Below, piece by piece: positions 22,612 to 40,887 of a stretch of DNA of 43,192 nucleotides (positions within the stretch are counted from its first letter, which is position 1; every line of letters starts with the position of its first letter). The DNA comes from Yersinia thracica (GTDB lineage: Bacteria > Pseudomonadota > Gammaproteobacteria > Enterobacterales > Enterobacteriaceae), in NCBI RefSeq assembly GCF_902170565.1, contig NZ_CABHXX010000012.1:1-43192 (forward strand). Reading direction: 5' to 3'. Below the pieces are notes generated by a model. That model was not told where the DNA came from and did not search any database. It was given only the letters and a program-made list of their open reading frames with translations. A program made the translations under genes and the position numbers.

Positions 22612-22800
22612 CGCTGCAGCGTTGTTAGCGGCGCTCATGCACCCGAATCACTGACTTGAGTAAGCTCATCGGGATTTATTCGCTTGCTGCCTAGCTGCAA
22701 CGCCAATGACTTTGGGTAGTACTTTCGGCCTTGACGCTGCAGCGTTGTTAGCGGCGCTCACGCACCCGAATCACTGACTTGATTAAGTGATTCGGGATTG
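22603..22800. repeat. Tandem ERIC-like partial repeats between mak and sbcC
   Basis: A 62-base unit at 22603-22664 recurs at 22726-22787 with two differences (positions 36 and 58 of the unit). The first copy runs on into CTCATCGGGATTTATTCGC and GCTGCAACGCCAATGACTTTGGGTA, which resembles the end of the ERIC elements at 31.1 and 37.5 kb. The second copy folds into a perfect 11-pair hairpin, CCCGAATCACT (22765-22775) with AGTGATTCGGG (22786-22796), which could terminate both mak and sbcC. The repeat supplies the mak stop codon. Confidence 0.75.
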
Positions 22801-39522: not shown

Positions 39523-39822
39523 TCTGACTCCTGTTATTTCCTGCCCGCCGAGGGTTACCCGGTCATTTTTGTCTGGCAGCTTAAAAGCGCTGCTTATGGT
39601 GTGTGCAAAACACACGCCAGTAATAATTAATAGCAGAATTAATGTTTATGGCTGCTAATTAATTGGCAACAGGAGGGGAGGGAGAGGGTTTTACTGAAAC
39701 TGATAGGGTGATTTTTACTCAGGTGAAGTTCAGATGGATGCAAATAACCAATTGAAAATAAAGATATATTCTCAAAATAGATAAGCTGGGAATAAAACTG
39801 ATTATTATATAGACTCTGCGGC
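39523..39822. other. Divergent region ggt / hok-sok locus
   Basis: No gene found. A hairpin TGGTGTGTG (39597-39605) / CACACGCCA (39611-39619) with one G-T pair would lie in the ggt 5-prime untranslated region. AT-rich sequence near 39801-39812 (ATTATTATATAG) offers a plausible -10 for the hok messenger. Confidence 0.45.
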
Positions 39823-39828
39823 GGGTGC

Positions 39829-40056
39829 TTGAAGCTGTCTGCTTTAAGTGCTTATGTCCGGCTGAAGGCAGGCAGAGAAAAGCCCCGTATTAAAATTAAT
39901 CAATACGAGGCTCTCTGTAACGCCAGACAACGTTACGGTAGCCTTATACCCGCCGAAAGGCAAGGCAAGGAGGCTGAATATGCCACAAAATACGTTTGTT
40001 ATATGCCTGTTAATTGTTTGTATAACAGTGCTGGCATTTACATTAATTACGCATAA
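39829..40056 (+). CDS. Mok-like overlapping regulatory reading frame
   Basis: This 75-codon frame overlaps the start of hok in another frame and ends within it, the position of mok in hok/sok loci, where its translation is required for hok translation. The product is basic in its first half (YVRLKAGREKPRIKINQYEA). The TTG at 39829 is the first possible start but has no clear ribosome site; the true start could be an internal rare codon. Its function is inferred from position. Confidence 0.45.
   Translation: MKLSALSAYVRLKAGREKPRIKINQYEALCNARQRYGSLIPAERQGKEAEYATKYVCYMPVNCLYNSAGIYINYA
39875..39936 (-). ncRNA. Sok-like antisense RNA
   Basis: On the minus strand TATAAG (39948 to 39943) is a possible -10, which would start RNA near 39936. 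A terminator follows: AGCC and CGTATT pair with AATACG and GGCT (plus-strand positions 39881-39891 and 39902-39912), then TTTTC. The RNA would be about 60 nt, like Sok, and complementary to the mok leader. The -35 is a poor match, so exact ends are uncertain. Confidence 0.6.
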
Positions 40057-40132
40057 ATCACTATGTGAATTACGCCTAAAAGATGGAAGCAAAGAGGTTG
40101 CGGCCATTTTAGCCTACGAATCTGAACGGTAA
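39980..40132 (+). CDS. Hok/Gef-family toxic membrane peptide
   Basis: This 50-residue peptide starts MPQNTFVICLLIVCITVLAF and continues through TLITHKSLCELRLKDGSKEV to AAILAYESER. The family pattern is clear: one membrane helix (about 6-24), then the conserved KSLCE-R, K/RDG-x-EVAA and AYES segments found in HokA/HokC/HokE. Hok peptides insert in the inner membrane and depolarise the cell. AAGGAGG is six bases before the ATG. Cys residues at 9, 14 and 29 include the conserved periplasmic Cys. The frame is intact, so the toxin could be active and must be held down by the antisense RNA and mRNA folding. Confidence 0.9.
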   Translation: MPQNTFVICLLIVCITVLAFTLITHKSLCELRLKDGSKEVAAILAYESER

Positions 40133-40141
40133 GGCAACCGG

Positions 40142-40164
40142 GGCGGGGAGCAATCCCCGCCTTT
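40142..40164 (+). terminator. GC stem near the 3-prime end of the hok messenger
   Basis: GGCGGGG (40142-40148), loop AGCAAT, CCCCGCC (40155-40161), then TTTC. It resembles the stable 3-prime stem of hok messengers, just upstream of the fbi segment. Confidence 0.7.
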
Positions 40165-40210
40165 CGTTGTCAGGTAGCAGTTTTCAAGCACCCATGTTCA
40201 ATCTACATAA

Positions 40211-40246
40211 GAATAAAAAAGCCAGTCAGAATGAACTGACTGGCTT
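40211..40246 (-). terminator. Intrinsic terminator of the peroxiredoxin gene
   Basis: AAGCCAGTCAG (40219-40229) and CTGACTGGCTT (40236-40246) form 11 perfect pairs with a 6-base loop. On the minus strand the stem is followed by TTTTTTATTC, a clear terminator for the minus-strand gene that ends at 40285. Confidence 0.9.
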
Positions 40247-40284
40247 GATACCCCCGAGTCAATCAGGGGTGGCATAAACCGTTA

Positions 40285-40887
40285 TTACAGTTTAGAGGCG
40301 TTTTCAGACAGATATTTAGCAACGCCATCTGGAGATGCGCCCATACCTGCTTTACCTTTTTCCCACTGTGCAGGGCAAACGTCGCCATGTTCTTCGTGGA
40401 ATTGCAGTGCATCAACCATACGCAGCATTTCGTCAATGTTACGGCCCAGAGGCAGATCGTTAACCACTTGGTGACGAACAATACCGTTTTTGTCGATCAG
40501 GAAAGAGCCACGCAGTGCAACGCCAGCATCTGGGTGCTCAATGCCGTAAGCTTTCTGAATTTCACGTTTGATATCAGCAACCATTGGGTATTTAACTTCA
40601 CCAATACCGCCTTTATCAACCGGAGTTTTACGCCATGCATTGTGTACAAACTCGGAGTCGAAAGAAACACCAACAACTTCAACACCACGTTTCTGGAATT
40701 CTTCGTAACGGTGGTCGAAAGCGATCAACTCTGAAGGACAAACGAAAGTGAAGTCCATTGGCCAGAAAAACAGGACGGCAGGGCGGCCGTTCAGGTGTTT
40801 TTTCAGGTTGAAGTTTTCAACGATTTCGCCACTACCAAGAACAGCAGCTGCTGTAAAATCAGGGGCTTGACGAGTTACCAGAACCAT
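40285..40887 (-). CDS. tsaA: Typical 2-Cys peroxiredoxin (TsaA/AhpC family)
   Basis: This peroxiredoxin reduces hydrogen peroxide and organic hydroperoxides. The 200-residue protein has the peroxidatic Cys50 (DFTFVCPSEL) and the resolving Cys171 (HGDVCPAQW), plus GGIGEVKYP at the flexible loop. It belongs to the Prx1/TsaA branch, distinct from E. coli AhpC. Salmonella has a gene of this type, named tsaA, in the same place between malZ and acpH, which is why I use that symbol (from recall). A terminator follows, and an OxyR-like half-site lies about 110 bases upstream. An AGGAGT site lies just before the ATG. Confidence 0.92.
   Translation of the reverse strand: MVLVTRQAPDFTAAAVLGSGEIVENFNLKKHLNGRPAVLFFWPMDFTFVCPSELIAFDHRYEEFQKRGVEVVGVSFDSEFVHNAWRKTPVDKGGIGEVKYPMVADIKREIQKAYGIEHPDAGVALRGSFLIDKNGIVRHQVVNDLPLGRNIDEMLRMVDALQFHEEHGDVCPAQWEKGKAGMGASPDGVAKYLSENASKL

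What the first reader, a model, noticed from the sequence alone, without database searches (positions are those of the whole stretch)
39823..40195. Complete hok/sok-type toxin-antitoxin locus hidden between ggt and tsaA
Seen: a 50-codon Hok-like frame with a strong ribosome site, an overlapping mok-position frame, a minus-strand promoter-like TATAAG plus a terminator giving a ~60 nt antisense RNA, and 11-base perfect complementarity between the two ends of the putative messenger. Known: hok mRNA is controlled by tac/fbi pairing and Sok. Inference: this is a functional type I system, not a decayed copy, since the toxin frame and every RNA element are intact. Its toxin frame is short and would be skipped by many gene callers.
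Basis: partly seen in the sequence, partly recalled or inferred. Interest (0 to 1): 0.78.

Follow-up and report, generated by a model that had tools for sequence, protein, structure and literature searches.

The report
Yersinia hok/sok locus without mok start
This is a real, intact-looking chromosomal copy of the well-known hok/sok toxin-antitoxin pair, ordinary in most respects, except that the small leader gene thought to switch the toxin on has no recognisable start codon, as in a good part of its relatives.

Summary
The window holds a genuine hok/sok type I toxin-antitoxin locus between ggt and tsaA of a Yersinia chromosome: Rfam sok 111 bits, cut-off 59; Pfam HOK_GEF 69 bits, cut-off 22; single copy in its genome. 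End pairing, antisense terminator and Hok frame are present; the fold is far more stable than shuffles (z -7.2). Of 25 Yersinia genomes, 9 keep full-length hok at this site and 9 show it cut, replaced or deleted.

One claim fails: the mok position has no ATG, GTG or TTG but ACG. The hairpin around it keeps its pairing by compensatory change, so RNA structure is better kept than the start codon. Of 140 distinct hok loci, 90 have ATG there and 50 do not; well-supported branches force at least 6 changes of state. Hok looks under purifying selection in Yersinia and most Serratia copies without ATG. A known system, with a leader variant worth testing. No expression data were seen.

The parts
39806..39815 (+). 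conserved TATATAGACT block just upstream of the hok RNA start (probable hok promoter -10 area; promoter not assigned)
   Evidence: nearly unchanged in the 10 Yersinia copies aligned; no consensus sigma-70 match
39823..39833 (+). 5' end element (tac) of hok mRNA
   Evidence: 11-nt perfect complement of 40183-40193; Rfam sok model position 1 at 39823; element name recalled
39872..39928 (-). predicted Sok antisense RNA (ends by homology to K-12 sokC/sokB; 3' end approximate)
39882..39911 (-). Sok terminator hairpin, T-run on minus strand at 39878-39881
   Evidence: sequence; fold; recognisable in the 10 copies; not listed by the scan
39907..39910 (+). GAGG, the mok Shine-Dalgarno position (also part of the Sok terminator stem)
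39915..39938 (+). Sok-target hairpin, 8 bp stem 39915-39922/39931-39938, loop 39923-39930
   Evidence: covariation
39920..39922 (+). codon at the mok start position: ACG, in frame with hok, no standard start
39923..39932 (+). target-loop element (ucb-like) complementary to 40165-40174
   Evidence: 9 of 10 paired; element name recalled
39935..39963 (-). Sok promoter by homology: -35 TTGCCT 39963-39958, -10 TACCGT 39940-39935
   Evidence: against K-12 sokC; 7 of 12 consensus letters
39967..39973 (+). hok Shine-Dalgarno AAGGAGG
   Evidence: sequence
39980..40132 (+). hok, 50 aa membrane toxin
   Evidence: PF01848 69.2 bits, NF007279 89.8 bits
40142..40161 (+). G+C-rich hairpin after hok
   Evidence: 8 bp, 4 nt loop
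40165..40174 (+). downstream element (dcs-like) pairing with the Sok-target loop
   Evidence: name recalled
40183..40193 (+). 3' fold-back element (fbi)
   Evidence: end pairing; name recalled

Best explanation
A chromosomal hok/sok type I toxin-antitoxin locus, kept between ggt and tsaA in part of Yersinia. The full-length hok mRNA is held inactive by pairing of its two ends (shown as sequence and fold). After 3' trimming it refolds and exposes the Sok-target hairpin (fold shown, trimming inferred). Sok, transcribed antisense to that hairpin, binds it and leads to RNase III cleavage (inferred from R1). In this copy the step that R1 uses, translation of mok opening the hok ribosome site, has no standard start codon. 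I think Sok here mainly acts by duplex formation and mRNA decay, with hok read at a low rate directly from its own strong ribosome site. Identity as hok/sok is near certain; the mok-independent step is inference.
For: Rfam and Pfam/NCBIfam matches. End pairing and folds. Synteny in relatives. No standard start at the mok position in window, L003, L007, L010 among the 9 intact Yersinia copies. A start with an SD-like motif whose frame reaches the hok ribosome site: 83 of 90 ATG copies, 6 of 50 others. The target hairpin keeps pairing while the start codon changes: column pair 21/33 is UA in 11, CG in 10, UG in 1 of 22 distinct rows, none unpaired. Stems of 5 or more pairs in 45 of 50 copies without ATG, against a fraction 0.43 of shuffles. 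Hok pN/pS 0.154 in the 9 Yersinia copies and 0.207 in 11 Serratia copies, the latter all without ATG; variable columns favour third codon positions, p 0.0003 and 0.029.
Against: No transcript, translation or toxicity data were seen. Selection within the window's own ACG pair (window, L003) rests on 10 variable columns (2/1/7, p 0.02); the ATA pair L007/L010 has 2 and the three Hafnia-type copies 9 (p 0.11, 0.14), and four divergent Serratia copies show no third-position excess (40/30/40, ungapped alignment of unequal lengths). RNA structure in the coding region could mimic constraint. A freer hok ribosome site in copies without ATG, which mok-independence would favour, was not significant (mean unpaired 0.476 in 50 v 0.411 in 85; p 0.19). 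5 of 50 copies without ATG have no target stem of 5 pairs. In one search two of five measures were reached by shuffles (50 and 332 of 500).
Confidence: 0.55

Rival explanations
1. Canonical hok/sok with a non-AUG mok: ribosomes start weakly at the ACG (39920), 9 nt after GAGG, and make a 70-residue in-frame extension of Hok like MokC of E. coli K-12.
For: K-12 mokC is an in-frame extension of hokC; the frame from this codon is open into hok here and in the 4 Yersinia ATG copies with an in-frame start; at this position the intact Yersinia copies have only ATG, ACG or ATA, and the Serratia copies other than L036 have ACG. In several Serratia copies this frame ends at a stop overlapping the hok start, a layout that could also couple the two.
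Against: ACG and ATA are poor starts (recalled). The changes keep the hairpin paired, which explains them without translation. Other lineages have, by my reading, no near-cognate there (for example the CTCAACT hairpins). In 7 of the 8 Serratia copies printed the frame ends before or within about two codons of the hok start.
Confidence: 0.27
2. A silenced or early-decaying copy: loss of the mok start leaves hok untranslated, and the rest survives by inertia.
For: At this site 1 relative is truncated, 5 have most of hok replaced by a repeat and 3 have larger deletions; 6 of 25 genomes have no sok match at E 0.001.
Against: Hok frame intact and looking constrained in copies without ATG; both states without ATG occur in several species (ACG: window, L003, L016; ATA: L007, L010, L017, L019), though L016, L017 and L019 have lost hok; decayed copies also occur with ATG (L008, L009, L012, L013, L015).
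Confidence: 0.15
3. Fully canonical locus with every element intact.
For: The elements tested other than mok.
Against: No ATG, GTG or TTG at the mok position; mok frame below the DUF5431 cut-off.
Confidence: 0.03

Closest known systems
hok/sok of plasmid R1 (Hok/Gef family, Rfam sok RF01794)
   Same: Toxin family, antisense position, end pairing, Sok terminator and target hairpin
   Different: R1 needs mok translation for hok (PMC4147584, passages seen); here mok has no standard start; chromosomal, single copy. R1 sequence itself was not fetched
mokC/hokC/sokC of E. coli K-12 (gef)
   Same: Same order; sokC's 5' end lies 8 nt inside mokC; the homologous codon lies in frame with hok
   Different: K-12 has ATG at the mok position (L083)
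Serratia and Hafnia chromosomal hok loci (L031, L038-L052)
   Same: No standard start at the usual mok place (ACG or ATA; L038, L039 and L049 have a GTG 13 nt from GAGG in a 5-codon frame), same hairpin plan
   Different: No ggt or tsaA match in the flanks held; Hok 46-64% identical. Other Serratia copies (L036, L037) do have ATG
chromosomal hok-sok of Erwinia amylovora
   Same: Chromosomal type I locus in Enterobacterales (PMC7821729, start of abstract and passages)
   Different: Toxicity tested there; not compared by sequence here

Membership tests
hok/sok type I toxin-antitoxin | Hok/Gef toxin protein | tested here: met
   PF01848 69.2 bits, cut-off 22; NF007279 89.8, cut-off 73
hok/sok type I toxin-antitoxin | sok leader/antisense RNA family | tested here: met
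   RF01794 111.1 bits, cut-off 59, full model 1-157
hok/sok type I toxin-antitoxin | 5'/3' end pairing (tac/fbi) of the mRNA | tested here: met
   11 nt perfect, fold z -7.2, arms kept in the 9 intact copies with two single deviations
hok/sok type I toxin-antitoxin | Sok-target hairpin | tested here: met
   8 bp stem; covariation on 26 chosen sequences: 21 two-sided cells v 6.9 in shuffles, 0 of 500 as high
hok/sok type I toxin-antitoxin | mok frame with a start codon, coupled to hok | tested here: not met
   No ATG/GTG/TTG at the position; a non-AUG start cannot be tested here
hok/sok type I toxin-antitoxin | Sok promoter and transcript | tested here: inconclusive
   Homologous -35/-10 present but weak, 7 of 12 consensus; no promoter in the scan; no RNA data
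hok/sok type I toxin-antitoxin | Toxicity of Hok and its relief by Sok | not testable with these tools
   needs experiment

The most novel reading that the evidence does not exclude
A recurrent, functional class of hok/sok loci has dispensed with mok: the Sok-target hairpin is under selection as RNA while the leader start codon has been lost or gained several times, so translational coupling through mok is not essential to hok/sok control.
Probability: 0.4. Interest if true: 0.6.

Novelty: new variant of a known kind. Interest (0 to 1): 0.36.

Why it matters
A review states that mok translation is absolutely required for hok translation (PMC4147584, passage seen), from work on R1. If about a third of sampled loci (50 of 140) lack an ATG at the mok position yet keep Hok and mostly the target hairpin, nature has already run the test, and comparing natural leaders with and without a start would show whether coupling or RNA structure is the core of the control. 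The locus itself is otherwise an ordinary chromosomal copy.

Tried and rejected
Consensus promoter scan: nothing found, treated as uninformative. Idea that copies without ATG have a freer hok ribosome site: not supported (p 0.19). First alignment A1 mixed strands because loci of the genome search are not oriented; dropped and redone. Rfam Qrr and DUF3800-XI hits at 40212-40294 and 40146-40172 are below their cut-offs and rejected; the former overlaps the tsaA terminator hairpin. Assembly error as the cause of ACG: unlikely, since L003 and L016 have the same codon and in the window and L003 the partner base differs with it. Literature: the listings showed no title or abstract start on hok loci without mok; I read passages only, of PMC7821729, PMC4147584, PMC8309996, PMC8621323, PMC11228461 and PMC2891591, and did not open the rest. 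Covariation in the hok mRNA family as such is already published (passage and reference in PMC2891591). Two papers that I recall as most relevant could not be read: one on the hok mRNA family (DOI given from memory) and one revisiting hok/Sok regulation (PMC9841398). Priority therefore cannot be judged.

Full report
Identity. The stretch 39823-39982 matches the Rfam sok family over its full length at 111.1 bits (cut-off 59), E 9.9e-26, the only family hit over cut-off in the whole window. The 50-residue frame 39980-40132 matches Pfam HOK_GEF at 69.2 bits (cut-off 22) and NCBIfam NF007279 (type I toxin Hok) at 89.8 (cut-off 73). Each family hits once in the own genome, here. The genus is Yersinia: contigs of same-genus genomes have the lengths of named Yersinia contigs (for example 41200 for Y. 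aldovae).

Anatomy. 39823-39833 and 40183-40193 are perfect complements. The RNA 39823-40195 folds with its ends together at -145 kcal/mol, shuffles -104.2 +/- 5.7, 0 of 100 as stable. Without the 3' element (39823-40170) the 5' end instead closes on itself in a 13 bp hairpin, as expected of a trimmed, refolded messenger. A second long-range pairing joins 39923-39932 and 40165-40174, 9 of 10. The antisense strand has the terminator hairpin of Sok; the piece 39936-39870 folds at z -7.0. The E. coli K-12 record annotates sokC as 59 nt with its 5' end 8 nt inside mokC, and sokB as 57 nt. Lined up with sokC, the window has TTGCCT-17-TACCGT and a start near 39928.

Relatives at the same site. Of 25 Yersinia genomes, 19 have a sok match at E 0.001 and 15 over the cut-off. 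Tblastn of ggt, tsaA and hok on the loci and alignments give: 9 with full-length hok between ggt and tsaA (window, L003-L007, L010, L011, L014); 1 with hok cut to 21 residues (L012); 5 in which hok after about its first four codons is replaced by an ERIC-like repeat while the sok leader still scores 97-107 bits (L008, L009, L013, L015, L016); 3 with larger deletions (L017, L019, L020); 1 with its match at another place (L018, no ggt or tsaA beside it); 6 genomes without a match. Two genomes (G014, G018) have a second sok copy elsewhere (L022, L021). So the site is old and the toxin is often lost, but not in this copy.

mok. In R1, mok translation is described as absolutely required for hok (PMC4147584, passage). 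K-12 mokC is an in-frame 69-residue extension of HokC. The window has GAGG at 39907-39910, but no ATG, GTG or TTG 2-17 nt after it. The codon in the homologous place is ACG (39920-39922), in frame with hok. The only standard start upstream whose frame reaches the hok ribosome site is TTG 39829, without an SD. Of the 9 intact Yersinia copies 5 have ATG at this place, 2 ACG, 2 ATA.

Survey. I examined 157 loci after dropping 7 duplicates (L002, L023-L028); 145 gave Hok hits, 12 did not. The loci come from the genus search, the protein scan, the family search of 246 genomes (30 loci, plus 80 of the other 120 listed places; the better-scoring places are favoured) and K-12. Of 158 hits, 13 were identical repeats, 4 had no methionine near the start and 1 no GAGG, leaving 140 distinct. 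ATG at the mok position: 90 (41 in frame with hok, 39 overlapping in another frame, 10 short). GTG/TTG only: 7. None: 43. These are not independent; Serratia is over-represented and genomes have several copies. On a quick hok tree of 137 of the 140 rows the label needs 16 changes, 6 of them forced by well-supported branches; this cannot tell gain from loss. Because GAGG is also part of the Sok terminator stem, its conservation is no proof of mok translation.

RNA selection. On 26 sequences that I chose from named genera of the 140 (22 distinct; Yersinia, Serratia, Hafnia, Citrobacter, Klebsiella, Franconibacter), the hairpin over the mok start pairs in 84.6% of cells (shuffled 74.8), with 21 two-sided cells (shuffled 6.9, 0 of 500 as high), and every slid register is far worse. 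'Pairs with a two-sided change' (4) was reached by 50 of 500 shuffles, 'further pair types' (8) by 332 of 500. At the pair that includes the middle base of the start position, each of the 10 rows with C has G opposite. Covariation in hok mRNAs in general is published (PMC2891591, passages). Since the predicted Sok begins inside the loop, this selection would act on the messenger (inference). Copies without ATG have longer perfect stems than those with it (mean 6.6 v 5.3; shuffles 4.5 and 4.4).

Hok selection. pN/pS is 0.154 in the 9 intact Yersinia copies, 0.146 in the 4 of them without ATG, 0.207 in 11 Serratia copies, 0.151 in 3 Hafnia-type copies (one named Hafnia alvei, two unnamed), and 0.433 in a divergent group of 8. 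Variable columns by codon position are 10/4/23 in Yersinia, 15/9/22 in Serratia, 2/1/7 between window and L003, 0/0/2 between L007 and L010, 3/1/5 in the Hafnia-type; four divergent Serratia copies show 40/30/40, no excess.

Reading. The locus is hok/sok by the elements I could test except mok; promoter and transcript stay open. Either the leader is read from a poor start, or Hok control here does without mok. The covariation and the lineages with no near-cognate codon favour the second across the family; for this copy alone the two cannot be separated. Nothing here shows expression or activity.

Noticed in passing
L008, L009, L013, L015, L016 (hok position): Five Yersinia genomes keep a sok leader over the Rfam cut-off while hok after about codon 4 is replaced by a palindromic repeat (129 bp in L015, 204 bp span in L013): antitoxin parts without toxin.
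   Followed up: partly
window 22617-22716 and 22740-22799, and other contigs of the own genome: The same ERIC-like repeat (name recalled) has 46 match rows in the own genome, two adjacent ones in the window (only 40 of 185 first-look candidates were scored, so a lower bound).
   Followed up: partly
L021, L022: Two Yersinia genomes carry a second, distant hok/sok copy at another site, Hok about 53% identical over 38 residues.
   Followed up: no
L005, L007, L010 hok start: A 3-nt insertion gives ATGTTG in place of ATG at the hok start, adding one residue without breaking the frame.
   Followed up: no
L006 (Y. artesiana) v L003: The leader of L006 resembles one group of Yersinia copies and the 3' part of its hok resembles another, which suggests recombination within the locus.
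   Followed up: no
40219-40246: Strong terminator hairpin for tsaA on the minus strand, 11 bp stem; it lies in a sub-threshold Qrr hit.
   Followed up: partly
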